From Dermacentor variabilis (taxonomy: Eukaryota > Arthropoda > Arachnida > Ixodida > Ixodidae): DNA of 64,000 bases. The translations under genes were made by a program, and so were the position numbers. The stretch is from positions 255,571,778 to 255,635,777 of the forward strand of contig NC_134568.1 of assembly GCF_050947875.1 (NCBI RefSeq), read 5' to 3'. Below are positions 36,601 to 55,141 of this stretch, piece after piece. The first letter of the stretch is position 1; every line of letters starts with the position of its first letter. A model generated the notes under the pieces. That model did not search any database, was not told where the DNA came from, and saw only the letters and a program-made list of their open reading frames with translations.

Positions 36601-37096
36601 GTTATGTTGTTCACAAAGGTCTAGCATTGACTTTCCGTTGTTGTTGGTATAGCCATCTAAATCCTGTATGTGGGCATTCATGTCACCTAATAGGATAATT
36701 TCAGCACCATTCCCGAAACCCTTAATATCAGCGCTTATGCATTCCACTAACTCTTTATTCTTCTATGTACAATTATTTCTGGTCCACAAATACGTAACGC
36801 CCAGCAAAGTTTTTTCCCCACTCATTGTACCTGATAACCAAAGATGCTCTTGACATTGTGAATTTACTCTTTTCCATTTGTCTCCCTGATGGATGAGCAT
36901 TCCGACTCCCCCTCCCTTTCTTTCCGACTTAGTTCTGTTGCACCCTTCCCAAACATAATTCTCAATAACTGGCGGCTCTTCTGAGTCTCTAAGGTGCGTT
37001 TCTGTAACCGCATGCACCCCTATTTGTTCTCTATGTAACTGCTCCTCAATCTCTGCCCACTTTTCCTTTCTTCTGCCGCCCTGCATGTTTATGTAG
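33676..37096 (-). mobile_element. LINE with SGNH ORF1: 3' part (endonuclease and RT)
   Basis: Read on the minus strand: endonuclease with VTETHLRD (near 36980), LLGDMNAHIQ (near 36680) and SDHKRIILKL (near 36430); RT with FLDFTGAYDNV (near 35300), GLRQGCPLSPLLF (near 35110) and a mutated catalytic box YVYDIVLLA (near 34975) in place of YADD. C-terminal segment to about 34020; 3' tail with CATCCAT repeats near 33676-33700. Multiple frameshifts. Upstream it continues beyond the LTR element at 43925. Confidence 0.85.
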
Positions 37097-37878
37097 TGTT
37101 GCGTTTCGCCTGCGACACGTGGTTTTGCCGGCGCGACGGCGGCGGGGCGGCGGACATTTTGGCCCGATCGTCGTCACCGCAACACTCATCGCCAGGTGTT
37201 TCCAGGCGCGTCTGCGGCGATGCGACCGCCTAGGGATTTCGTTCCAGTCATTGTGCCCGAAACAGGCGAGGCCAAAGCAGGGATCTCCTTCCAGTTATTG
37301 GGCCCGAAACAGGCGATGCCAAAGCAGGGATCTCGTTCCAGTCATTGTGCCCGAAACAGGCGATGCCAAAGCAGGGACCATCTTCTCGTTACAGTCATTG
37401 TGTCCGACCGGCAGCGCCACGACAGTGTGCTGCGCAGCGCCACGACCAGGTGCTACGAGATCGTGCGCAGCGCCACGACATGGTGCTACGGCATCGCTAC
37501 GACAGTGTGCGTCACCATTAGCCCATTGTACATTCACGTGCTCGTCTTTTGAGGGGTTCCTTCTTGCCCTCAACTGCGAGAGTATAAAAACAGCTGCCCC
37601 CGGACGCCAGAGGAGGGCTCCGATTTCTTCTGTTGAGTGAAGTGCTCTCCCGTCTCTCTACTTCGGTCAAAACCTGACCGCCAACTCTTTGCGATGTTAA
37701 AATAAACAAGTTGTTTCGTTGTTACCTGTCGACTCATGCTTTGCCGGGACCTTCGGATGCTTGCAGTTGTACCCCAGGCCGCCAGGCCAACGCTACCCTT
37801 GGGGCTTGCGACCCAGGTACAACCACGGGCGTCAGCGCCGAGTTCCCAACAGATCGTACCAGCAGTCAGGTCCAAACA
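37097..37878 (+). repeat. 5' LTR (782 bp)
   Basis: Begins TGTTGCGTTTCGCC and ends GTCCAAACA (TG...CA). TATA box TATAAAAA at 37583-37590 and AATAAA at 37701-37706 give a U3-R-U5 layout with transcription start probably near 37610-37620. The GCCCGAAACAGGCGA(G/T)GCCAAAGCAGGGA unit of about 50 bp repeats three times in U3 (37254-37380). Confidence 0.92.
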
Positions 37879-37880
37879 TC

Positions 37881-37898
37881 TGGTTGCCAGCGGTGAGA
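37881..37898 (+). promoter_or_regulatory. Candidate primer-binding site
   Basis: TGGTTGCCAGCGGTGAGA lies two bases after the 5' LTR and starts with TGG, as expected for pairing with the CCA end of a tRNA. The tRNA is not identified. Similar stretches recur downstream at 37921-37938 and 38038-38053, which makes the call uncertain. Confidence 0.4.
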
Positions 37899-38233
37899 TC
37901 GCCTCCGACTTCAAACAACTGTCTGCCTGCGGTGAGATCGCGACAACGGAGGCCAGCAGCGAAGAGATGCAGTTGACTGTATGCTGAGCAGCTCAACGAC
38001 GATCCGGGAGCAGTGCAACGAGCCCTGTGTGACGACTGGTTGCCTGCAGCGGAACGACTGCGCGGAATTCCTGCCTGCGAGGTTTGGTGAGTGCGGGACT
38101 TTCTTCTTCTGAGCTTTGCCAGGCTTTTTGTTAGTGTCAGAAACAGAGCTGGTAATTGTGGTTGTCGTTGCTGCCGGGTTAGTTTGCGGCAAGACAATAG
38201 TAAGCAGTAGAGAAAGCAGCATTCAGAGCAGCC

Positions 38234-41200
38234 ATGGATTTGAAGTCGTTGCGCAAACCGAAATTGTTGGAGCTTGCAAGAGAGTTGGGTCTGGATGTCT
38301 CAGACAAACTAAGAAAACCTGAACTGCTAAAGGCTATTCTTGAATTAGAGGCTGAGGATGACGAGCTGTCGGAATGCCTTGAGACTATTGAGGAGAGGTC
38401 AAAAAGACAGGAGCGCGAACTTAAAGAGCAGAAAGAAAAAGAAGAGCGCGAACACGCTTTGGAAATGAAGCGTCTCGAGGTAGAGATGGAACGCGCTCGT
38501 AATGGAAGTCAGGCACACGGTGCAGGAGAACGAGTATTGTTCAAAATGACTGACCTGATGCGGCCGTTTAAGCTTGGAGAGGACATTGGTTTGTTCCTGG
38601 TTAACTTTGAGCGAACGTGCGAGAAGCAGGGGTTCTCTCGGGAAACGTGGCCACAGCGCTTGCTCACTTTGTTACCCGGCGAGGCGGCCGACGTAGTCGC
38701 TCGCTTGGATAGAGAGGAAGCAGAGGATTTCGACAAAGTAAAATCGAGTCTGCTAAAAAAGTACCGGCTGTCTGCGGAAGCGTTCCGTCGGAAGTTTCGG
38801 GAAAATGAGAAAGGCAAAAGTGAGTCATATACAGAGTTTGCGTATAGGCTTATGTCGAACATGCAGGAGTGGCTCAAAGAAGAGAAAGCGTTTGGTGACC
38901 ACGATAAAGTTCTGCAGTGTTTCGGGCTAGAACAGTTTTATAGTCGGTTACCGGAGAACGTGCGATACTGGGTCTTGGATAGGCCAGACGTGAGTACGGT
39001 GGCTAGAGCCGCTGAGCTAGCCGAGGAGTTTGTGACGCGTCGAGCTCGCGGAGCTAAGGACGGTCAAAAGGGTGAATTTGGCTCCAAGTCTGAGAGGCCA
39101 AGGTTCACGCCCATGAGATTTAAGGGGGACACGCGTAGTGAGGATGCGAGTGAAAGCAATCCGACCAGACGTAAAGAGACGGCGGCAGCCAAACGCAGAA
39201 AGCGGTTCGAGATGAGGCGAGCGGGCGTTTGTTATACGTGCCAGAAGCCGGGTCACTTTTCGGCGCAGTGTCCGGAAACAACACCAAAAGTTGTGTTTTT
39301 TTCAATAGGCAGCACTGACGAGAACATGAAGCTTCTTGAGCCTTACATGCGAGACCTCCTCGTAAACGGGAAAGAGTGCCGAGTGCTTCGCGATTCCGCA
39401 GCTACGATGGATGTAGTTCACCCGTCTTACGTAGAACCCCATATGTTCACGGGCGAGTGCGCGTGGATCAAGCAAGCCGTGGAAGCTCATAGCGTGTGTC
39501 TGCCGGTAGCAAAAGTGCTTATTGAAGGACCTTTCGGAGCGCTTGAGACGGAGGCGGCAGTGTCATCTATGCTGCCACCCCAGTACCCGTACCTATTTTC
39601 AAACAGGTCCGATCACCTCCTGCGCGAGAAGGGGCTTTTGTTTGGTGAAGCTAGTGTTCAGGCCTTAACCAGATCGAAGGTTCGGGAGCTCGCTGCAAAG
39701 GCGGTAGTTGCGGGGCCGACGTTATCAAACAACGAAAAAGGGTCAGAGGCGCAGCAAGCTGATATTCAGAGCACGCCCGAACAGAATAGAATTGAGTCTG
39801 TAGCGTTGAAGGCGCCAGATACTGGAGAGGAAAATCCCGACGCGGGAAAGTTAGAAGAGCTATCTACTGATTTGCTCATCGCGCCTACGTCAGACGGACT
39901 TGATAGGTTGCTAAAAGTCAGCCGGACGGCTTTGATAGCCGAACAAAAAAAGGATGGCAGCCTGGAAAACGTGCGCTGCAATGTCAAAGAAGGTATCGCC
40001 AGGAAAACTGCGCGTTTTGTGGAAAGAGGTGGAGTCCTGTACCGGAAGTATCTAGACCGCCGAGGAGTGGAGTTCGATCAGCTGGTCGTGCCTCAATGCT
40101 ATCGTCAGGATCTGTTGCGCTTGTCACATGGGGGTTCGTGGTCCGGACACCTAGGAGTTAAGAAAACTAAGGACCGTCTCTTGCAAGAGTACTATTGGCC
40201 AGGGTGTTTTCGGGACGCAGACCATTTCGTGAGGACATGTGACACTTGTCAGCGGGTGGGCAAACCAGGGGACAAATCGAGGGCGCCGTTGAAATTGGTA
40301 CCTATCATTACGGAGCCTTTTAGACGGCTCGTTATTGATACTGTGGGACCTCTGCCGGTAACAGCCACGGGGTACAGACACATTTTGACTGTGATCTGCC
40401 CAGCGACAAAGTTCCCTGAAGCAGTGCCGCTTAAAGAACTCAGCTCAGTTGAGATAGTTAATGCACTACTGTCCATATTTGCGCGAGTTGGTTTTCCTGC
40501 AGAAATTCAATCAGATCAGGGCACAGTGTTTACTAGCGCTTTGACGACAACTTTTCTCGAAAGGTGTGGGGTAAAGCTGTTACACAGCTCAGTGTACCAC
40601 CCACAGTCGAATTCCGTTGAGAAGCTCCACTCCGTCATGAAGCGCGTGTTGAGAGCCTTGTGTTTTGAACATCAAACTGACTGGGAGCTGTGTCTGCCTG
40701 GGGTGATGTTTGCTTTAAGGACCGCGCCGCATGCGGCTACGGGGTTTTCGCCAGCTGAACTGGTGTACGGTCGCTCGCTTCGATCTCCGCTTCGCATGCT
40801 TCGAGAATCATGGGAAGGTAGGGGCGACGACCCAGTCGTGGTGGAGTACGTGCTTAAGCTCCTCGAACGCTTAAGAAGGGCACAGGAGTTGTCAGGTGAA
40901 GCAATGACAAAGGCCCAGCAGAGGGCCAAGGTTTATTATGATCGGACAGCCAGGGCCCGTCGTTTTGAGGTTGGCGATGAGGTCATGATATTGCGCACAT
41001 CGCTAAACAACAAACTAGACGTGCAGTGGGAGGGCCCAGCGCGAATTGTTCAGAAACTGTCGGACGTTAACTACGTGGTAAGTCTGCCAGGAAAGCGGAA
41101 AGCACAGCAAGTTTACCACTGTAATCTGCTCAAACCTTATAGACAAAGGGAAGCAGTGGTGTGCATGATGGTAAACGTTCCTGAAGAGCTTCCGGTCGAG

Positions 41201-42655
41201 CTTCCGGGACTAGGCTCAGTGACGAACAGGGAAGACACCGGTCAAGTCATTAGTGACCTTATCAGTAAAGCACCGCTGTCGCCTGAGCAGAAAACCGAAC
41301 TACACCAGCTATTACAAGAGTTTCAAGGTCTGTTCTCTGAGAGGCCTGGTAGGACTTCTGTACTTACTCATGATATAGAACTTACCTCCACAGAGCCAGT
41401 ACGATCCAAGGCGTATCGGGTGTCACCCCGCCAGAGCGATATTATGGAGGCTGAGGTAAAGAAAATGCTACAGCTCGGTGTTATTGAGGCAGGTGAGAGT
41501 GATTATACCTCCCCTTTGATTTTAGTTGAGGTACCGGGCAAGGAACCTCGTCCTTGCGTCGACTACCGCAGGCTTAATTCCATCACTAAGGATCAAATTT
41601 ATCCGATCCCTAACATCGAGGAGCGCCTTGAGAAAGTTAGTAGCGCTCAGTTTATTTCCACCCTAGATCTTGTCAGGGGTTATTGGCAGGTTCCCCTTAC
41701 AGAAGAGGCTAGTAGGTATGCGGCGTTCATTTCACCAATGGGAACATTCCGTCCTAAAGTGTTGAGTTTTGGTTTGAAGAACGCGCCATACTGTTTTTCA
41801 AGTCTCATGGATAAAGTGTTGCGGGGACAGCAAGAATTCGCTTTACCGTATCTAGACGACGTAGCGATATTCTCCGCATCCTGGTCTGAGCATATGACAC
41901 ACTTGCGGGCAGTGCTAACCCGCCTGCGCGAAGCAGGCTTGACAGTAAAGGCTCCTAAGTGCCAGTTAGCACAGGCCGAGGTTGTCTACCTCGGTCACGT
42001 GATTGGTCAGGGTCGTCGCCGCCCCTCTGAAATAAAAGTGGCCGCTGTGCGAGACTTTCCGCAACCGCGCACAAAGACCGATATTCGGTCGTTCTTAGGT
42101 GTCGCCGGCTACTATCAGAGGTACATCCCTAGGTACTCTGATATCGCGGCTCCCCTGACGGATGCTCTAAGAAAGACAGAGCCTCAAACAGTCGTCTGGG
42201 ACGAGACAAAGGAAAGAGCTTTTAGCGCCCTAAAGAGTGCCCTAACAAGCCAGCCTGTGCTACGATCGCCAGACTATACAAAAGGGTTCATTGTTCAGTG
42301 CGATGCTAGTGAGCGAGGCATGGGCGTTGTACTGTGCCAACGGGAAAATGGAGAAGTAGAACACCCCGTCCTGTATGCTAGTCGTAAGCTGACCAGTCGT
42401 GAGCAGGCGTATAGCGCCACCGAGAAAGAGTGTGCATGTCTCGTGTGGGCCGTTCAGAAATTGTCATGCTATCTAGCCGGCTCGAGGTTTATCATTGAGA
42501 CAGATCACTGCCCTCTCCAATGGCTGCAGACCATCTCTCCCAAAAATGGCCGCCTCCTGCGCTGGAGCCTCGCTTTACAACAATATTCCTTTGAGGTGCG
42601 TTACAAAAAGGGGAGTCTCAACGGTAACGCCGATGGCTTAAGTCGAAGCCCCTAA
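38234..42655 (+). CDS. Gag-pol polyprotein, 1473 aa, PR-IN-RT-RH order
   Basis: One frame with no stop or frameshift; start ATG in good context (GCAGCCATGG). Domains: SAP/HeH-like motif (about 1-40), Lys/Glu-rich coiled coil (40-95), capsid with a SCAN-like C-terminal part (about 190-275), CCHC zinc knuckle (333-346), retropepsin-like site DSAAT (D387), integrase with HHCC zinc site (H632, H639, C669, C672) and catalytic D702, D761, E796, GPY-like segment near 930, RT from about 1055 with YLDD at 1206-1209, RNase H with D1357, E1399, D1424, ending NADGLSRSP. Gag and pol are fused with no frameshift site. Integrase lies before RT, opposite to most Ty3/gypsy elements. D761-E796 spacing has 34 residues between rather than 35. 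Protease Gly of DT/SG is Ala here. Probably competent or very recently so. Confidence 0.95.
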   Translation: MDLKSLRKPKLLELARELGLDVSDKLRKPELLKAILELEAEDDELSECLETIEERSKRQERELKEQKEKEEREHALEMKRLEVEMERARNGSQAHGAGERVLFKMTDLMRPFKLGEDIGLFLVNFERTCEKQGFSRETWPQRLLTLLPGEAADVVARLDREEAEDFDKVKSSLLKKYRLSAEAFRRKFRENEKGKSESYTEFAYRLMSNMQEWLKEEKAFGDHDKVLQCFGLEQFYSRLPENVRYWVLDRPDVSTVARAAELAEEFVTRRARGAKDGQKGEFGSKSERPRFTPMRFKGDTRSEDASESNPTRRKETAAAKRRKRFEMRRAGVCYTCQKPGHFSAQCPETTPKVVFFSIGSTDENMKLLEPYMRDLLVNGKECRVLRDSAATMDVVHPSYVEPHMFTGECAWIKQAVEAHSVCLPVAKVLIEGPFGALETEAAVSSMLPPQYPYLFSNRSDHLLREKGLLFGEASVQALTRSKVRELAAKAVVAGPTLSNNEKGSEAQQADIQSTPEQNRIESVALKAPDTGEENPDAGKLEELSTDLLIAPTSDGLDRLLKVSRTALIAEQKKDGSLENVRCNVKEGIARKTARFVERGGVLYRKYLDRRGVEFDQLVVPQCYRQDLLRLSHGGSWSGHLGVKKTKDRLLQEYYWPGCFRDADHFVRTCDTCQRVGKPGDKSRAPLKLVPIITEPFRRLVIDTVGPLPVTATGYRHILTVICPATKFPEAVPLKELSSVEIVNALLSIFARVGFPAEIQSDQGTVFTSALTTTFLERCGVKLLHSSVYHPQSNSVEKLHSVMKRVLRALCFEHQTDWELCLPGVMFALRTAPHAATGFSPAELVYGRSLRSPLRMLRESWEGRGDDPVVVEYVLKLLERLRRAQELSGEAMTKAQQRAKVYYDRTARARRFEVGDEVMILRTSLNNKLDVQWEGPARIVQKLSDVNYVVSLPGKRKAQQVYHCNLLKPYRQREAVVCMMVNVPEELPVELPGLGSVTNREDTGQVISDLISKAPLSPEQKTELHQLLQEFQGLFSERPGRTSVLTHDIELTSTEPVRSKAYRVSPRQSDIMEAEVKKMLQLGVIEAGESDYTSPLILVEVPGKEPRPCVDYRRLNSITKDQIYPIPNIEERLEKVSSAQFISTLDLVRGYWQVPLTEEASRYAAFISPMGTFRPKVLSFGLKNAPYCFSSLMDKVLRGQQEFALPYLDDVAIFSASWSEHMTHLRAVLTRLREAGLTVKAPKCQLAQAEVVYLGHVIGQGRRRPSEIKVAAVRDFPQPRTKTDIRSFLGVAGYYQRYIPRYSDIAAPLTDALRKTEPQTVVWDETKERAFSALKSALTSQPVLRSPDYTKGFIVQCDASERGMGVVLCQRENGEVEHPVLYASRKLTSREQAYSATEKECACLVWAVQKLSCYLAGSRFIIETDHCPLQWLQTISPKNGRLLRWSLALQQYSFEVRYKKGSLNGNADGLSRSP

Positions 42656-43142
42656 CGTAGGAATCAGCCTCAAAATTGTTTGTTACTGATGTTTTTCTTC
42701 CTGAGGCAGGATTTTTTTTTAACATATTGCTTTTGTTTAGTGTTTCAAAGTGATGATATGCTTTCTAGTGCAATTTTTCAATTTGTGGACGCGTTCTGAG
42801 TGATGCTAGACTACTGTAAGGAACTAGGCAGTGGTATAAAAAGGGGAAAGAGCCTGGCAGGGCTTAGTGAGGGTTGTGCCGTGCTTGCTGACTGAGCGGT
42901 TGAGTTTTCAGCGTAGTTCTAACGCTTGCCGGGAACGAGAACAAAAATGTGAACTCTCCCGAAGTCACTTTGCAGTGTCCCGTGCGAACCTGAACGAGAG
43001 AACGAGGCCTTCTCTGTGCGCTGCGCTCAAGAAACGTCAAGGGACGCCCGACTTCGGTTATGAGCATCATCGAGCGACATCCCTCCGGACAGCGGATGCA
43101 GTCCCCTGTCCATCGGGATCTCCTTTCCCCGGCGGGGCGGTC
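42656..43142 (+). other. 3' untranslated leader of the LTR element
   Basis: 487 bp between the stop codon and the 3' LTR. It contains a second TATA-like box (TATAAAAA, 42835-42842) well upstream of the LTR. The segment before the LTR (GGCGGGGCGG) is only weakly purine-rich, so the polypurine tract is unclear. Confidence 0.6.
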
Positions 43143-43924
43143 TGTTGCGTTTCGCCTGCGACACGTGGTTTTGCCGGCGCGACGGCGGCGGGGCGGCGGA
43201 CATTTTGGCCCGATCGTCGTCACCGCAACACTCATCGCCAGGTGTTTCCAGGCGCGTCTGCGGCGATGCGACCGCCTAGGGATTTCGTTCCAGTCATTGT
43301 GCCCGAAACAGGCGAGGCCAAAGCAGGGATCTCCTTCCAGTTATTGGGCCCGAAACAGGCGATGCCAAAGCAGGGATCTCGTTCCAGTCATTGTGCCCGA
43401 AACAGGCGATGCCAAAGCAGGGACCATCTTCTCGTTACAGTCATTGTGTCCGACCGGCAGCGCCACGACAGTGTGCTGCGCAGCGCCACGACCAGGTGCT
43501 ACGAGATCGTGCGCAGCGCCACGACATGGTGCTACGGCATCGCTACGACAGTGTGCGTCACCATTAGCCCATTGTACATTCACGTGCTCGTCTTTTGAGG
43601 GGTTCCTTCTTGCCCTCAACTGCGAGAGTATAAAAACAGCTGCCCCCGGACGCCAGAGGAGGGCTCCGATTTCTTCTGTTGAGTGAAGTGCTCTCCCGTC
43701 TCTCTACTTCGGTCAAAACCTGACCGCCAACTCTTTGCGATGTTAAAATAAACAAGTTGTTTCGTTGTTACCTGTCGACTCATGCTTTGCCGGGACCTTC
43801 GGATGCTTGCAGTTGTACCCCAGGCCGCCAGGCCAACGCTACCCTTGGGGCTTGCGACCCAGGTACAACCACGGGCGTCAGCGCCGAGTTCCCAACAGAT
43901 CGTACCAGCAGTCCGATCCAAACA
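43143..43924 (+). repeat. 3' LTR (782 bp)
   Basis: Same length as the 5' LTR, offset 6046 bp. The visible differences are in AGTCCGATCC here against AGTCAGGTCC in the 5' LTR. TATA box at 43629-43636, AATAAA at 43747-43752. Confidence 0.92.
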
Positions 43925-44945
43925 GTAGCCTATTGCATGGCGAGCTCTCTTTCTTGCCTTCCTCCTTTTTCTGTTATTGACGGCGATGCTATACTGAGGT
44001 TCCCTTAGGGGATCTTCTTCATTACTACCTACTGTGGCCTCCTGAGCGCCCGTGGGCCCCCTAAAGAAGCAACAGTGAGACCAGCGAGTCGCCAGCCCAC
44101 TTCTCGTGCAAGCCTGTAATTGAAGTGGATCCCGTCTCGTTGAAAACCACCACACCTTCTCACTTCCCTGTTTACTTCGACAACCTCGAAGCCTTTCTCT
44201 CGGCTCATTTTCCATATCACCTCATTAGCAGCCACTACGGCTCTTTGTATGTGACTGTCACGTACAGGCACCTCCGGCATCGTGCACAAGCCAATCTGCA
44301 CCTGAGGGGATAGCTCGCGCAAGTCGTCCACCGCCTTCGCCAAGCGCTGGGCTAGTCCTGTTCCTTTCCTGTTTAGGACGTCATTTAGCCCACCTGCTAC
44401 TATGACAAGGTTGCGCACGTGGGCATTTTCCGCGAGCTTTTCTTTTGCTCGCTCCATGACAGAACCCAGTGTCCACCCTGGAAATGTCCCTACCGCCACT
44501 CTTTTATCGCCTTTCACCCTCGCCATAATTGCTCGTGAGCACCTACCCAGGTTTGAGTCACCGGCGATAATCACCATTTCACTCTCTCCTACCTCTCTCT
44601 GCTTCCCTTTGTCCTTTTCCGCATGATTCGGACTTGACAAGGGGCATTGACCCACGCGCTCCTGCTTTTTCCGCGGGGAGGCCTCAAGGTAGGTGCCGCT
44701 CTTTCCAGCTGCCCCCTCCCCCCATTGCACACATTCCACGTGCTTTGCTGACACTCCATCTCCTGTCACGTCGGGAGACTGCGTTCGATGGTCACGACCA
44801 TTGTCGTTCACAATGGTGGTCCTGTTCAGATTTTCCTCGGCTGCTTGAAGTCTTTTTTTCCACTACCTTCCGTGCATCACGCTCCATATTTAGCTCAGTT
44901 TTCAGCTCTTCAACCTGTTTGGCAAGCTCATACAAAGACATGCTC
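43925..44945 (-). mobile_element. LINE with SGNH ORF1: 5' part
   Basis: Continuation of the LINE at 33676-37096, separated from it by the 6.8-kb LTR element. Removing that element and one GTAG copy joins the ORF2 frame as AIGY then INMQGG. Contains ORF1 (44029-44941) and the start of ORF2. Confidence 0.85.
44029..44811 (-). CDS. LINE ORF1 with SGNH-hydrolase (esterase-like) domain
   Basis: 260 codons. SGNH blocks are visible: block I as GDSN (84-87) within VIIAGDSNLGR, block III as GGLND (140-144) within LVIVAGGLNDVL, block V as DGIH (226-229) within FQRDGIHFN. Ser86, Asn143 and the Asp226/His229 pair are thus all present. ORF1 esterases of this kind are known in CR1-type LINEs. A Lys/Glu-rich coiled segment (YELAKQVEELKTELNMERDA) starts at an ATG at 44941 in another frame, so one frameshift near 44811 probably separates an N-terminal coiled coil from the esterase. 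Confidence 0.75.
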   Translation of the reverse strand: MNDNGRDHRTQSPDVTGDGVSAKHVECVQWGEGAAGKSGTYLEASPRKKQERVGQCPLSSPNHAEKDKGKQREVGESEMVIIAGDSNLGRCSRAIMARVKGDKRVAVGTFPGWTLGSVMERAKEKLAENAHVRNLVIVAGGLNDVLNRKGTGLAQRLAKAVDDLRELSPQVQIGLCTMPEVPVRDSHIQRAVVAANEVIWKMSREKGFEVVEVNREVRRCGGFQRDGIHFNYRLAREVGWRLAGLTVASLGGPRALRRPQ

Positions 44946-45984: not shown

Positions 45985-46054
45985 TGCGCGTGTGCGTGTG
46001 CGTGCGCGTGTGCGTGTGCGTGCGTGTGCGTGCGTGTGTGCGTGCGTGCGTGTG
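45921..46054 (+). repeat. (GT)n / (GTGC)n microsatellite
   Basis: Alternating GT and GTGC/GCGT units over about 134 bp. Open frames across it are artefacts of the repeat. Confidence 0.95.
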
Positions 46055-46091
46055 TTTCCGGGGGTGGGGGCTGAGACCCCACCCCCGGAAA
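46055..46091. repeat. Perfect 15-bp G/C-rich hairpin
   Basis: TTTCCGGGGGTGGGG, loop GCTGAGA, then the exact complement. It directly abuts the GT microsatellite and is followed by C-rich sequence (46092-46133). Confidence 0.85.
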
Positions 46092-46184
46092 TTTTTCAGA
46101 GGGTGCTCGGGCCCCGGAGCCTCCCCCCCCCCTACAACGTCAGAAAACAATGTGGTGTGATTAAACTATAGAAACTTGCAGACA

Positions 46185-46290
46185 CAAGGAGGGAATAGCT
46201 GGCGCAAGACAGGGGTAATTGTACATCGCTGGGAGAGGCCCGTGTCCTGCAGTGGACATAATTAAAATGATGATTATGATGATGATATCG
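46185..46290 (+). mobile_element. LINE 3' terminus fragment
   Basis: CAAGACAGGGGTAATTG, CGCTGGGAGAGGCCCGTGTC and CTGCAGTGGACATAA followed by a (ATGATG)n-like tail. This matches the 3' end typical of an arthropod LINE family; about 100 bp remain. Recognised from memory of the family, so moderate confidence. Confidence 0.55.
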
Positions 46291-47145
46291 CTCTTATGTC
46301 ATATCTCACATCGCTCCCAATGGCAGACTTTTGGAGTCCGTAGTTATTTCCTTCCTTCATGGTGGCGTTCGTAATCCAGGACATGCGAAGATGCCATTAG
46401 TGCGCTATGCCCATTGAATGCTCCATCGCTCGGTGCTATTGTTATCCGCCTAGCACTTCTTCCTCTTCACTCAATTAGCTCGCATACTGTCGCGTTGGTG
46501 TATCATGCTGGCGGCGAAAGGTAGCAAAACGTAACAAGGCGAAACGACAAGGCATGACCAAGAAACTAGCAGGCATAGAGAACTTGTCCTTCCCTATACT
46601 GTCATGTCTTGTTGCGCTGCCAACTTTTGTCACCATATGAAACAGGCTACAGCCCATGCATAGTATACATGTATGCCGTGTTTGTATGAGAGCAGTTCGT
46701 TTCTGAGAACCCGCGCAATACCGGACGACGCAAGACGTGCGCGCACTAGGCTCGCGGCCGCTTTTATCTCCGCGTCGGCAGCTGCTGGAAACCCCTCGCG
46801 GGGCAGCGAAGCCGTACAGCTTAGCGCACGCAGAGGGTTTCGCCTCGGCAGGAGGCCACGCACCGCACGGTTTACGGAGCTTTCCGCCACGGGTGCCACG
46901 CCGCCGTTGCTCTCGTCTCCGGAGGCTCGGCGAATCCAGCACGAAGCGCGCACCAAGCCAATGTGACCCAATGTTGGCTGGTGTGCGTAAGATCTGGAAG
47001 ACGCGGTCCCACGGTCCTTTCCTAGACCTTGGGTGGGGGGTCCTTCCACTGACTGGCATCGGGTGAACTGAAGCACGAGCTGCTTAGTCGCATACACCGA
47101 TGCCCTATATAGGGAATCGCTGTATCCCGCCCAGTCTATATATAT
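46291..47145. other. Unassigned, GC-rich in part
   Basis: A GC-rich patch at 46680-46960 has overlapping ORFs on both strands but no domain I recognise. Confidence 0.35.
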
Positions 47146-47219
47146 TGCTACGAATGAAGAATGAGTCTATTTACAGTGAAAATGGTAGGGAAGACATGGG
47201 ACGATCCGAAACAGCCGAT
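47146..47219 (-). repeat. Terminal repeat (3' LTR end)
   Basis: Matches 52454-52527 with about ten differences. Only 74 bp are shared; sequence beyond it (47220 onward) does not continue in the other copy, so the LTR is either very short or truncated. Both ends abut TATATA-type sequence. Confidence 0.65.
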
Positions 47220-47316
47220 CACTCCGAAAACCTCGCGCCGCTTCTTCTTTCTCTTCCACGCTTCTCCGGTGCGGCGTTACACTTTCCTCCGGGGCAGACG
47301 AAGCTCACCGAGCGAG

Positions 47317-48708
47317 TCAGAGTGCGCGATGATGGTACGGTTTCAATCGTGCGACGTGCATACCTTGCGTCTTGCGTGAACGGCGGTTGTCAGCCGCCAC
47401 TTTAGCGATGACATAGGTCACTTCACTCAAGCATTTGAGAATGACGAACGGGCCCGAATACTTGGACAGAAGCTTTTGGCAAAGTCCCCTTTTCCGAACC
47501 GGTGTCACAGCCACACGAAGTCGCCGGTGGCGAATCTGAAGGGCAGATAATGTGCGTCGTAGCGAGCCTTAGCATGAACATGCGACGAGAGGGTTCTGAG
47601 CCGGGCAAGTCGACGAGCTCCTTCGGCACAACACAATATCTGCGTGACAGAAGCATCGTCGTTAGGTGAAAAAGGAAGTATGGTGTCGAGAAAACTTTGA
47701 GAATGGCGAGCGTAGAGGAGAAAGAAAGGTGCGTATCCTGTGACTTCATGCTTGGCTGTGTTGAAGGCTGACGTGATGAACGGTAATATGGCATCCCAGT
47801 TCTTATGATCCACTGAGACATACGCGTACATTGAAAGCATGTTGACGAGGCTACGATTGGTGCGCTCGGTTAGACCATTGGTTTGCGAATTTGTGAGGAG
47901 TGGAATGATGATATTGAGTTCCACAAAGGCGTAGCAACTCTTCCACGACGTCAGCGGTGAACTACCGGCCGCGATCATTTATCACCACACGAGGAGCTCC
48001 GTGGCGGAGGATAATCTAATGCAGAAGAAACCCCGAAACATCGGATGCTGTAGCCGAGACACGTGCCATTGTTTCAGTATAATGTGTTAAATAAGCCACG
48101 CACACGTTTATCCAGCGGCCGCCAATGGAAGACTTGGGGAGAGGACCGCGTAAATATACACCCACTTTCTCAAAAGATGAAGTCGGCGGTCGAACCGGTT
48201 GCAGTGTTCCTGAAGGAGCTGTAGTCGGTTGTTTGTGGCGTTGGCAGACGTCACAGCTGGCGACATACTGCTTGGTTGTCTTCCACGATTGAGGCCAATA
48301 GAAACGTAGTCGGAGGCGGTGGAGCGTTCGAGCGAATCCAAGGTGACCGGATGTAAGGTCGTCGTGCATGGTCCGAAGTACAGCAAGGCGCAGGCATTTT
48401 GGGACGACGAGCAGCAGTGGAGCACCGTTGTTTGAATAATTCTTGTGGTAAAGCAAACCGTCCTGAATCACAAATGGCGTAGCCCGTTCAGACCTGGGGG
48501 TCGCATCTATAATCGGCTTTAGTGAAGGGTCGCGCTTTTGTTCGTTCATGAAGACAGCAAAGTTCGATGAGATTGTAGTTAAGTAGTCATCGAAATCGTC
48601 ATCATCAGTACCCTCGCTCTGACAGGGAAGACGAGATGAGCAGTCGGCATCTGTGTGGCACCGAGCGCTCTTATAAGCAACAGAAAAGTGGTATTCTTGA
48701 AGACGCAA
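47317..48708 (-). pseudogene. gypsy integrase remnant
   Basis: Zinc-binding part with HDDLTSGHLGFARTLHRLR and CDVCQRHK near 48230-48360. The first catalytic position reads VYLRGPLP where a V-D-x-x-GPLP is expected, so Asp is replaced. After a break: TNSQTNGLTERTNRSL (Glu site, near 47860) and a C-terminal SGPFVILKCLSEVTY. At least three frame changes. Confidence 0.8.
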
Positions 48709-48753
48709 GGCCCACCCAGCTAACCGCCTGGCTGGGTCACGCAGTCCAACGAG

Positions 48754-49119
48754 CTAGCAGAGAGAATGATGGTCGTTGACAATCTTGAAATGGCGGCCAT
48801 ACAAATAATATCTGAACTTATGGATGGCGAAAACAACAGCAAGACATTGCAGTTCCGTGACTGTGTAATTGCTTTCTGCTTTCGTCAAAGTACGACTTGT
48901 GCACGGAACGACGTGTTGGCGTCCGTCATGAAACTGGACGAGCACAACACCAATGCCCATACAAGTTGCATCAGTATGCAGTTCGGTGAACGCCTCCGTA
49001 TCGAAATGGCGAAGCAGTGGCCCAGAGGTGAGCAAAACTTCAGCGGCTGGAAAGCAGTCTCGCACTGAGTGGACCATATGCAGGAAGTGTACTTGCGGAG
49101 CAGGTAAATCAGTGGACAA
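48754..49119 (-). pseudogene. gypsy RNase H remnant
   Basis: ELHTDATCMGIGVVLVQ carries the first Asp, VTELQCLAVVFAI the Glu, and IVNDHHSLC the position of the last Asp (VTDHHSLC expected). Open over 121 codons. Confidence 0.8.
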
Positions 49120-49508
49120 GCAAGCTGGGCGAACTCTTTAATAAACCTGCGAAAATAAGAACAAAGGCCCAGGAAACTTCTGAGGTCTTTCACTGTCTTC
49201 GGCTGCTTAAAGTAGCGAACAGCAGAAATCTTTTGGGTATCTGGCCGTATACCGTCCTTGTCGACGAGATATCCCAGCACAAGGGCTTGACGCTCACCGA
49301 AACGACACTTCTTAGAGTTTAATATGAGGCCAGCCTGTCGGATGTAGTCCAAAACAACGCCAAGCCGCTGGTTGTGCTCGTGGAAAGCTCGGCCGAAAAT
49401 AATCACGTCATCTAAATAATACATGCAAATCTCCCATTTGAGACCGAAGAAGATGGAGTCCATAAATCGCTCGAAGGTTGCTGGGGCATTACATAAGCCA
49501 AACGGCAT
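48885..49508 (-). pseudogene. gypsy RT, catalytic half
   Basis: MPFGLCNAPATFERFMD, then YYLDDVIIF with an intact YLDD, then LGYLVDKDGI and FLGLCSYFRRFI of the connection domain. 207 codons open. It is separated from the N-terminal RT half (49562-49954) by a frame change near 49530. Confidence 0.85.
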
Positions 49509-49561
49509 GACTCATGAACTCATAGAGTCCATCAGGCGTAACAAAAGTGGTCTTTTCTCTG

Positions 49562-49954
49562 TCAGACGGGTGCATCGGTATCTGCCATTACCATGGACCG
49601 GAGGTCAACTGATGAAAAGTATGAGGTGTAGTGAAGGCAGTCAACAGCATCGTCAATGCGTGGTAAGGGATGCACGCAGTTCTTTGTGACGGCATTCAGG
49701 CAGCGGTAGGCGACATAAAATCTCCACGAGTTGTCTTTCTTTTTCACTAGTACAACAGGAGCTGCCCAAGGACTGCAAGACTCCCGAATAACACCTCCCT
49801 GCAGCATGACATTGACCTGTTCGGCGATCACTTTTCTTTCCGTGGGTGATACGCGATAGGGTTTCTGGCGTATCGGAGTCGTACCCTGTGTTGATGCGGT
49901 GGTGCATGCGGGATTCCGGCAACATCCGAGAACGCTCGCGTTCAGTAAAATCAA
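49562..49954 (-). pseudogene. gypsy RT, N-terminal half
   Basis: PYRVSPTERKVIAEQVNVML, SPWAAPVVLVKKKD and HPLPRIDDAVDCL are the first RT motifs of Ty3/gypsy elements. The first catalytic Asp region reads FSSVDLRS, with sequence lost after it. Confidence 0.8.
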
Positions 49955-50423
49955 ATACTGACGTGTAGCAAGCGAGCACTTGTTGGAGTACGTTTTGCTC
50001 GGAAGACGACAACGACTTATTTATCATACGTCGCAAGTGACCCGTATAGTTGAGCAATGGTCGACTGATGTCTGAAGACACTGCAACTGTTCGTACATCA
50101 ATCGTGGCTTGCTCCTCAAATGTTGCCAGTTTAAGTCCGACTGGCAGGGTAACAGACTCCGTAGAAGCGTTCACTGTCCACAAGAAAGCGCGCCCGTCAA
50201 TGGCTTGAACAACAGATCGAGGGACCAACACATTAATCGCATCGTTATGATCTGGCTCGACAAGAGCGCTGCATGATCCCATCCGTACACGTGAACAACT
50301 CACGGGAACAAAGATAGATGTCCGACCAGGCAGTAACACATCTTGAGACAGTGAAAACACGTCGGCTTGATCGGTCTGCAAATCATCAAGTATGGCGATT
50401 GGCAATGTGCTCCTTAGTAAAAT

Positions 50424-50744
50424 CTATCCAGTCCCACAGTCAAGTGTAGCGCTGCATTCACGTAAGAAGTCTATGCCTAAAATAACATCATGAGTTGCGT
50501 GGACCAATACAGTGAACTCGGCTTTAAAGATCTGTCCTCCGAGCGCAACCAAAACCGAAGAAACACCAACAGGGCGCCAACTCCACGAAAATATTTTTCT
50601 TTGCGATCCCACGCGAACATAACTTTCTGTCCTAAGCAATTTTGGAAGCGAAGGCTCATAACAGAAATAGCGGCACCCTTTTCGACAAGAGCAGTAGTAT
50701 TTACACACACACACACACGCGCGCGCGCACGCACGCGCACGCAC

Positions 50745-50801
<57 letters not shown>

Positions 50802-50836
50802 TGCACGCACCGCACGCACGCCTTGTTCTTCAGCAT
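50424..50836 (-). pseudogene. gypsy protease region with microsatellite
   Basis: The protease core reads ALVEKGAAISVMS where ALVDTGA is expected, so the catalytic Asp-Thr is lost. Downstream HDVILGIDFLRECSATLDC matches the second half of retropepsins. The stretch just upstream is a GCAC microsatellite. Confidence 0.75.
50703..50820. repeat. (AC)n / (GCAC)n microsatellite in gypsy element
   Basis: 118 bp of CA then GCAC units, expanded between the zinc-knuckle and protease coding parts. Confidence 0.95.
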
Positions 50837-51467
50837 AACAGCAGACGGAGGAATTGGCGAGTCTGACCGTCCCGCGGCCGCACCTCCATCGGCCGCACCA
50901 GCTAGTGTTTCCCAGCTGCGGCGGGGAAGGCGAACGGCGCAGTCGGGTTGCTCGGAGACAGGGGATTAATCGCGCGATTGGTGCAACCATTGTTGCCGTA
51001 GAGGATGGACTCCAAATGGAGGGGCACGTCTTCGTGCACACAGCTGTGTACGCCGAAAGACGTGGCCCTCGCTGCGGGCAGTGGCGACAAAAGCGCCGGC
51101 GTAGCAGACGGGTAGGTCGCGGTTGAAACTAAATGGAGCAGGTACGCGTGGCGCCAGGTATGATTCCGCAGGAGCACGTCGTGGCATCAGGTATTCCGCA
51201 GGAACACGTCATGGTGTTGGGTAGTACTCTGTAGTATCCCGACGGACTGGTGAGGACTGGCAGCGACTGGGATTCGCTGGGTGAGACTGAAAGCTCGCGT
51301 TATCTGTATGGTTCTTCAGAAGGCGGTCGGCGCTCGATGCGATGTTCTCGCGACCAGGATAGTGGTTCGGGAATGCACTCGTCAAACGCGCACTGATAAC
51401 CATGGCGTATACTCCCTGAAGTCGTGCTAGCTCTTCTTGAACCATTAGACGCACGATACAGGCGACG

Positions 51468-52449
51468 TCATCGCAGGCAGCGACGTCCATACTTGCAACT
51501 GTGGTGACGTTGTCCAAGCGCCCGAACTTCGGTAAGATCCTTCAGGTCTTCAGAGCTTCGAACGCGCGACATTGCTGCCCGAATTCGGAAGGAGTGTTCA
51601 GGTTTTCTTTCGTTATTAAAAAAATTGTAGACGTCTTCAGCGCCGCCTTTTAATAGATGTCCAACATATTCGCGTTTACAATTCAGCATAGCTTCAATAT
51701 TTCAATATACGTTGTACACGTTTCACCAGGCAATTGGGCTCTGAGCGAAAGCTTGTGTTCCGCTTTCTTCTTGGAATTGGAGTCGCCAAAGCAGGCTTTC
51801 AATTCCTAGACAAAAGTTTCCCAAGTGGTTAGCACGCGTTCATGATTGTCAAGCCAAAGTAGAGCGGTACCGGCGAGAAAAAATGCAACGTTCACAAGCT
51901 GTGCTGACGTACTGTACTCCACTCGTTATGCCGGCTTACTCTGTCGTAGTGTCTCAGCCAGTCATCCACGTCTATCATCTGTTTTACCTGAGAATATACG
52001 TGGTTCCGGCGTCCAGTAGCTATAGGATGCCTTGGTCTCTGACTGGCTTGAACGATGCCTTCTTCGATTGTGTTCGTTGACAGGCTTGCTTGGGCGTCGG
52101 CCATAAATGTAAGCTCTGGTGGTAGTCCAGCCAGGCGTCTGCTTCTTCGAATGAATGAATTATAGGGTTTTACGTGCCAAAACCACTTTCTGATTATGAG
52201 GCACGCCGTAGTGGAGGACTCCGGAAATTTTGACCACGTGGGGTTCTTTAACGTGCACCTAAATCTAAGTACACGGGCGTTTTCGCATTTCGCCCCCATC
52301 GAAATGCAGCCGCCGTGGTCGGGATTCGATCCCGCGACCTCGTGCTCAGCAGCCCAACACCATAGCCACTGAGCAACCATGGCGGGTTGCTTCTTCGAAG
52401 ATGTTGTAGTACTGGTTTGTCCAGGACGACCAGTACGCAGCACTTCCAC
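51468..52449 (-). pseudogene. gypsy gag remnant
   Basis: After the SINE: RRLAGLPPELTFMADA (near 52120), then HYDRVSRHNEWSTV and, after a frame change, FFLAGTALLWLDNHE (near 51860), a typical Ty3/gypsy gag region. In-frame stops near 51808 and 51690. A SINE interrupts the N-terminus. Confidence 0.7.
52152..52387 (-). mobile_element. tRNA-derived SINE (Ruka-type), copy 3
   Basis: Flanked by a perfect 12-bp target duplication TGCTTCTTCGAA (52140-52151, 52388-52399). Box B-like GGGATCGAATCCC is intact; the body contains ACGTTAAAGAACCCC; the tail is ATTCATTCATTC on the minus strand. The best preserved copy in the window. Confidence 0.92.
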
Positions 52450-52453
52450 CCTT

Positions 52454-52527
52454 TGTTACGAATGAAGAATGGGTTTATTTACAGTGAAAATGGTAGAGAA
52501 GACATGAGACGGCCCGCAACAGCCGAT
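52454..52527 (-). repeat. Terminal repeat (5' LTR end)
   Basis: Counterpart of 47146-47219. The gag frame begins immediately inside it (minus strand, about 52449). Confidence 0.65.

Positions 52528-55141
<2,614 letters not shown>

What the first reader, a model, noticed from the sequence alone, without database searches (positions are those of the whole stretch)
37093..43928. Intact gypsy-like retrotransposon with integrase before reverse transcriptase (Gmr1-type order) in a tick
The 1473-codon ORF reads gag, CCHC, protease (D387), integrase (HHCC 632-672, D702/D761/E796), RT (YLDD 1206-1209), RNase H (D1357/E1399/D1424). Integrase upstream of RT is the copia order, but the RT and integrase look Ty3/gypsy-like (YLDD, GPY-like segment). 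This combination defines the Gmr1 group, first described from deuterostomes such as cod and sea urchin. A clean copy in an arthropod widens its range or is a separate origin of the order. A scrambled copy is unlikely because the frame is unbroken, target duplication and LTRs are intact, and the second gypsy element in the window has the usual order.
Basis: partly seen in the sequence, partly recalled or inferred. Interest (0 to 1): 0.88.

Follow-up and report, generated by a model that had tools for sequence, protein, structure and literature searches.

The report
Integrase-first gypsy retrotransposon in a tick
This is a complete, recently inserted copying "jumping gene" in a tick whose integrase sits before its copying enzyme, an unusual order already known in a group called Gmr1; it belongs to an arthropod branch with an altered integrase, and the tick genome holds many more copies like it.

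Summary
An LTR retrotransposon lies at 37093-43928: 782-bp LTRs with 2 differences, GTAG duplication, one 1473-codon ORF reading gag (SCAN-type capsid, CCHC), protease, integrase, RT, RNase H. It is a Gmr1-type element, not a chimera or copia: the RT tree puts integrase-first elements on one branch (100/100), 290 of 354 distinct listed homologs have integrase before RT, and 20 of 20 copies sampled from the host genome keep the order. An RT 33-mer occurs 5,291 times there. The range claim is mostly not new: Gmr1-like elements were reported in crustaceans (2013) and an annelid (2021). A separate origin of the order is not supported, though the integrase tree is less clear. Not found in print by my searches: an arthropod arm whose integrase loop is one residue shorter (DD34E; 77 of 77 scoreable against 0 of 195 in the deuterostome/sponge arm), a DSA protease motif, and the high copy number.

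The parts
37093..37096 (.). target-site duplication GTAG, left copy
37097..37878 (+). 5' LTR, 782 bp, TG..CA; TATAAA at 37583, AATAAA at 37701; internal 47-bp tandem repeat 37232-37377
37879..38233 (+). leader; TGG-starting candidate primer-binding site at 37881-37900 (primer tRNA not identified)
   Evidence: assignment inferred
38234..42655 (+). single gag-pol ORF, 1473 codons
38777..39043 (+). SCAN-type capsid domain (residues 182-270)
   Evidence: PF02023 E 3.4e-14, 52.8 bits, cut-off 27
39227..39277 (+). CCHC zinc knuckle (residues 332-348)
39323..39655 (+). retropepsin-like protease (residues 364-474 of the model match), active-site motif D387-S-A
40088..40603 (+). integrase H2C2 zinc domain (residues 619-676) and rve core (693-790); catalytic D702, D761
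40514..40621 (+). integrase D761 to E796, the DD34E stretch with the shortened HPQSN loop
41033..41137 (+). integrase C-terminal domain (Integrase_p58_C, GPY/F-like)
41540..42004 (+). reverse transcriptase, RVT_1, YLDD at 1206-1209
42272..42586 (+). RNase H
43131..43141 (+). G-rich polypurine-tract-like stretch before the 3' LTR
   Evidence: assignment inferred
43143..43924 (+). 3' LTR, 782 bp
43925..43928 (.). target-site duplication GTAG, right copy

Best explanation
A recently inserted, autonomous-looking LTR retrotransposon of the integrase-first (Gmr1-type) branch of Ty3/gypsy elements, in a tick close to Amblyomma americanum. Inferred mechanism: the LTR promoter makes a genomic RNA that is read as one gag-pol polyprotein; a SCAN-type capsid and CCHC nucleocapsid package it; a retropepsin with a DSA active site cuts the polyprotein, whose order is protease, integrase, RT-RNase H; RT-RNase H copies the RNA; the DD34E integrase inserts the DNA with a 4-bp staggered cut. 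The order was most likely gained once, before the arthropod and deuterostome/sponge arms split; loss of one residue in the integrase loop then marks the arthropod arm. Shown: anatomy, order, relatives, copies, duplications, LTR similarity, excess of synonymous change among copies. Inferred: enzyme activity, cleavage, current mobility, single gain.
For: Anatomy. RT and integrase both match Ty3 best among solved structures. Order: of 354 distinct listed homologs 290 have integrase before a single RT, 40 have several RTs, 24 have no integrase match, 0 have a single RT before integrase. RT-RNase H tree: 38 integrase-first rows one branch against 21 usual-order units, 100/100. The window's two nearest rows are Amblyomma americanum and Haemaphysalis longicornis in both RT and integrase trees. 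Integrase-to-RT spacing 423-437 residues in the 37 homologs compared. Own genome: 142 of 142 scored RT matches, the window's own included, are 100% identical over 270 residues, out of 64,882 candidates; 20 of 20 fetched copies in the same order, matching 4-bp duplications in 14 of the 17 with both LTRs resolved, 7 of 17 with identical LTRs; integrase 13 nonsynonymous to 69 synonymous differences, pN/pS 0.06; 5,291 exact RT 33-mers, control 0.
Against: In the full integrase tree two long usual-order rows fall beside the integrase-first rows; one clade is not rejected (AU p 0.406) and is recovered at 100/99 only after five long rows are left out. The named spider rows carry no SCAN match. Nine of the 290 rest on an integrase match under 100 residues. 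The cod Gmr1 was not available as a labelled sequence, so membership rests on the order and on fish, frog, echinoderm, lancelet and sponge integrase-first proteins. pN/pS uses non-independent copies taken from those with identical RT. Three of 17 copies show no matching duplication and 7 of 17 end in TA, one in AC, rather than CA. No expression or mobility data.
Confidence: 0.95

Rival explanations
1. A chimera or scrambled copy made from ordinary elements in this genome.
For: The window also holds a usual-order gypsy element.
Against: 20 of 20 fetched copies at other sites, and the three first-look loci that hold the integrase piece (L009, L010, L012), have the same order; homologs named from other ticks, spiders and a beetle share it; integrase and RT have the same nearest relatives.
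Confidence: 0.01
2. The order arose separately in arthropods.
For: The arthropod arm is long and distinct (100*, 100/97) with its own DD34E loop; usual-order sampling is only 21 units; the full integrase tree does not by itself give one clade; named spider rows lack a SCAN match.
Against: All 38 integrase-first rows are one side of a branch in the RT tree (100/100) and in the integrase tree without five long rows (100/99); integrase-to-RT spacing overlaps in both arms; SCAN matches in tick and beetle rows and in deuterostome and sponge rows.
Confidence: 0.05
3. A Ty1/copia element with misread domains.
For: Copia has the same domain order (recalled; also stated in PMC6238403).
Against: RVT_1 and not RVT_2 matches; the best solved relative of both RT and integrase is Ty3.
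Confidence: 0.005
4. The element reached ticks by horizontal transfer from vertebrate hosts.
For: Vertebrates carry integrase-first elements.
Against: The window lies in a tick-only group (96*, 93/93) inside an arthropod arm with spiders and a beetle; none of the vertebrate rows in the trees falls inside it.
Confidence: 0.03

Closest known systems
Gmr1 clade of Ty3/gypsy (Goodwin and Poulter, recalled; described in passages of PMC3587641, PMC6238403, PMC8220671)
   Same: integrase upstream of RT, Ty3/gypsy RT and integrase; SCAN in gag as reported for frog Gmr elements (PMC4131045, passages)
   Different: arthropod arm of the tree; integrase DD34E; protease motif DSA
Crustacean Gmr1-like elements GyRex4, Gychoro2, GyMaja1, GyLiva4, and the related integrase fragment GyRex5 (PMC3587641, passages)
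   Same: arthropod hosts, related to the Gmr1 clade
   Different: sequences not available here, so it is unknown which arm they join; GyRex5 is described with a DD35E signature and GyRex4/5 as similar to a fish element
Ty3 of yeast (4ol8, 7q5b)
   Same: closest solved RT-RNase H and integrase
   Different: integrase after RT-RNase H (positions in 7q5b); DD35E (alignment)
Mag, CsRn1, Squirrel and Toxo lineages of Ixodes scapularis (PMC4748124, passages)
   Same: tick Ty3/gypsy elements, TG..CA ends, 4-bp duplication
   Different: described with two ORFs; domain order not stated in the passages; whether Squirrel or Toxo is integrase-first could not be checked

Membership tests
Gmr1 clade | integrase domain upstream of RT in one pol | tested here: met
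   20 of 20 other copies
Gmr1 clade | RT of Ty3/gypsy type, not copia | tested here: met
   RVT_1 and no RVT_2; Ty3 best in PDB
Gmr1 clade | RT groups with other integrase-first elements, including deuterostome ones | tested here: met
   RT tree 100/100, 38 against 21 rows
Gmr1 clade | integrase groups with other integrase-first elements | tested here: inconclusive
   two long usual-order rows intrude, AU p 0.406 for one clade; 100/99 when five long rows are left out
Gmr1 clade | groups with the labelled type element Gmr1 of cod | not testable with these tools
   no listed hit carried that label
Gmr1 clade | SCAN-type capsid in gag (reported for over half of frog Gmr elements, PMC4131045) | tested here: met
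   PF02023 52.8 bits against cut-off 27
Ty3/gypsy integrases | DD35E spacing | tested here: not met
   34 residues between D761 and E796; 50 of 54 usual-order units have 35
retropepsins | D-T/S-G active site | tested here: not met
   D-S-A in the window and in 29 of 97 aligned rows of the list
retropepsins | retropepsin fold | tested here: met
Ty1/copia | RVT_2 reverse transcriptase | tested here: not met
   no match at E up to 1

The most novel reading that the evidence does not exclude
An arthropod-specific arm of integrase-first gypsy elements works with a non-standard integrase (DD34E, one residue missing beside the catalytic glutamate) and, in many tick members, a retropepsin with a DSA active site, and has nonetheless become a large recent retrotransposon family of a tick genome; the order itself, with its SCAN-type capsid, was gained once and is at least as old as its spread across sponges, deuterostomes and arthropods.
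Probability: 0.6. Interest if true: 0.62.

Novelty: new variant of a known kind. Interest (0 to 1): 0.52.

Why it matters
It shows that a rearranged gypsy lineage, reported so far mainly from vertebrates and marine animals, can be a large family in a tick genome, with many nearly identical natural copies in which the consequences of integrase-first processing can be studied. The DD34E loop and the DSA protease motif are natural variants of two textbook active sites that look conserved among copies. SCAN-type capsids in tick, lancelet and sponge elements bear on the origin of the vertebrate SCAN domain.

Tried and rejected
Chimera, copia and separate origin were tested and rejected or not supported (see rivals). 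The AU test with arthropod plus usual-order rows as one side (p 0.43) only asks whether deuterostome and sponge rows hold together, so I use it neither for nor against a separate origin. The candidate primer-binding site could not be tied to a tRNA; none was found in the window. Sequence search of the gag-protease piece against solved structures gave only 3 nucleocapsid or Gag hits. The VIA-align rows covered only the protease, so the capsid fold was not tested by structure. One search had too strict a cut-off and gave 0 hits; one search repeated it more loosely. Emerson and Thomas 2011 is not held. PMC2577118 holds none of the terms asked. Paper searches for Gmr1 with chelicerate words (6,112 papers with any 2 of 6 words, the 10 listed hold no Gmr1), with sponge (4 papers, of which I read other passages of two and nothing of the others) and for tick elements (5 papers) gave no tick Gmr1. 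Counting integrase copies by pattern and searching the integrase-RT junction in the genome did not complete. Rows dropped: the 40 multi-RT and 24 integrase-less proteins are outside the 290; of the 40, 39 begin with RT and 1 (P0241) with integrase; only 97 of the 120 rows and 3 of the rows had a protease match, and 5 of the 97 are gapped at the motif, 11 of 88 and 7 of 202 rows had no scoreable loop motif, 3 of 20 copies (L021, L027, L035) had no resolvable pair of full LTRs, and 3 of the other 17 (L019, L023, L026) had no matching duplication.
Full report
What is there. An LTR retrotransposon occupies 37093-43928. Its LTRs (37097-37878, 43143-43924) are 782 bp and differ at 2 positions, 772 and 774, with no gaps; they begin TG, end CA and are flanked by GTAG on both sides. 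The left LTR has a TATAAA and an AATAAA. One ORF of 1473 codons runs from 38234 to 42655. Pfam on three pieces of it gives, in order, a weak Rho_N-like N-terminus (below its cut-off), SCAN, CCHC, integrase H2C2, integrase core, integrase C-terminal domain, RVT_1 and RNase H; RVT_2 of copia does not match, and no protease family does. An AlphaFold model of the gag-protease piece (mean pLDDT 78.8, pTM 0.38) matches retropepsins at residues 364-474.

Host. The closest named RT relatives are from Amblyomma americanum (98% over the whole region, 97% over 84% of it); further named ticks are Haemaphysalis, Ixodes, Ornithodoros and Rhipicephalus (the list shows representatives of clusters at 90% identity). 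A tick near Amblyomma is the fair reading; the species is not shown.

Is the order real in the family? Three homology searches listed 354 distinct proteins (the best 120 each, capped). By domain positions 290 have integrase before a single RT, none has a single RT before integrase, 24 have no integrase match, and 40 have more than one RT. Nine of the 290 rest on an integrase match under 100 residues; of the 40, 39 begin with RT, mostly reading as fused gene models of usual-order elements, while P0123 and P0241 read as tandem integrase-first ones. In the host genome an RT search scored 142 of 64,882 candidates; all 142, the window's own included, are 100% identical over 270 residues, and 141 lie on contig C1, so this is a capped list and not a census; 127 of 142 lie in stop-to-stop frames of 1411 codons or more. 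I fetched 20 of these 142: all 20 read LTR, leader, gag-protease, integrase, linker, RT, RNase H, 3' untranslated stretch, LTR, one of them with split LTR matches. Seventeen have both LTRs resolved: 0 to 8 differences, none in 7 of 17; matching 4-bp duplications in 14 of 17; last two bases CA in 9, TA in 7, AC in 1. Two of the 20, and 4 of the 142, have a frame of 905 codons; the two sampled ones have identical LTRs, which suggests copies moved by proteins from others. Among first-look loci L009, L010 and L012 also show integrase before RT, and L011 shows no integrase piece. A 33-base RT stretch occurs 5,291 times exactly (2,678 and 2,613 by strand) and 0 times read backwards. If all of these were full length the family would make up about 1.5% of the genome; that is an upper-end inference.

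Selection. Against the window, the 20 copies show 13 nonsynonymous and 69 synonymous differences in integrase (pN/pS 0.06), 227 and 260 in gag-protease (0.25), 12 and 62 in RT-RNase H (0.06, but RT was chosen by identity). The copies are not independent, so these are descriptions, not tests.

Phylogeny. With 38 integrase-first rows and 21 usual-order units (Cordylochernes, fish, frog, plant, fungus, yeast Ty3), the careful RT-RNase H tree has the integrase-first rows on one side of a branch (100/100). The careful integrase tree places two long usual-order rows beside them; holding the 38 together costs 1.3 log-likelihood units (AU p 0.406), and without five long rows they are one branch at 100/99. 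Among integrase-first rows there is an arthropod arm of 21 rows (ticks, spiders, the beetle Onthophagus and unnamed rows; 100*, 100/97) apart from the deuterostome and sponge rows. The window's two nearest rows are the same in both trees. Integrase-to-RT spacing is 423-437 residues in the 37 homologs compared.

Two unusual active sites. First, the integrase has 34 residues between the second D and the E, one residue being absent beside the HPQSN loop. By best RT match the 290 integrase-first proteins split into 88 arthropod-arm and 202 other-arm rows, each with at least 30 bits of margin; the short loop is in 77 of 77 scoreable arthropod-arm rows (88 in all) and in 0 of 195 scoreable others (202 in all). 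Of 54 usual-order units 50 have 35 residues. The loop is found in 19 of 20 host copies, not in L021. Second, the protease motif is D-S-A: in the list 97 rows had a protease match, with 35 DTG, 29 DSA, 25 DSG, 5 gapped and 3 other. DSA rows include A. americanum, H. longicornis, one of two R. microplus and the beetle; named Ornithodoros rows, one Ixodes row and most named spiders have DSG, and Oedothorax has DTG. All 20 host copies have DSA.

What is known. [quoted passage not shown] passages of PMC8220671 place an annelid family in Gmr1; a passage of PMC8556966 lists Gmr1 among clades present in several phyla. Passages of PMC4131045 report SCAN in over half of frog Gmr elements, and a passage of PMC3424704 says the vertebrate SCAN domain derives from Gmr1-like gag. 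Passages of the Ixodes genome paper PMC4748124 name Mag, CsRn1, Squirrel and Toxo, not Gmr1. No held paper has the whole words tick, Gmr1 and retrotransposon together; two hold DD34E, integrase and reverse transcriptase, one titled on Anopheles transposable elements and one on a Tc1/mariner family (listing only). The library leaves out most subscription papers, so print elsewhere is possible.

Verdict. A real, intact, recently inserted member of a known kind of element, with two active-site variants and a copy number that my searches did not find in print.

Noticed in passing
own genome G000, contig C1, 11791960-11822467 (L037-L039): Six RT matches spaced exactly 6095 bp in one orientation: the stretches fetched show head-to-tail units that share LTRs, with 100% identity at that lag over 3.8 kb of L038. 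Real tandem growth or assembly effect not settled.
   Followed up: partly
L025, L032; 4 of the 142 rows: A recurring frame length of 905 codons; both sampled copies have identical LTRs, which suggests a defective subfamily multiplied in trans.
   Followed up: partly
P0004; P0111 and P0115-P0122; L011: Proteins from A. americanum and sea turtles with gag, protease and RT but no integrase match, and a host copy without the integrase piece; deletion or gene-model introns not separated.
   Followed up: no
38237-38359: Gag starts with a Rho_N-like match (21.1 bits, below cut-off 24.9) followed by a long predicted helix; a sea-urchin relative carries a SAP match (PF02037).
   Followed up: no
P0223, P0229: Sponge proteins (Halichondria, Amphimedon) with the same order and a SCAN match, placed among deuterostome rows; transfer or contamination not excluded.
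   Followed up: partly
37093-43928 family in G000: Seven of 17 sampled copies end their LTR in TA rather than CA.
   Followed up: no
44029-44811, minus strand: ORF with a GDSL-like lipase match just beyond the element; possibly part of a LINE (inference).
   Followed up: no
46000-53000, minus strand: Broken usual-order gypsy element, RT before integrase.
   Followed up: partly
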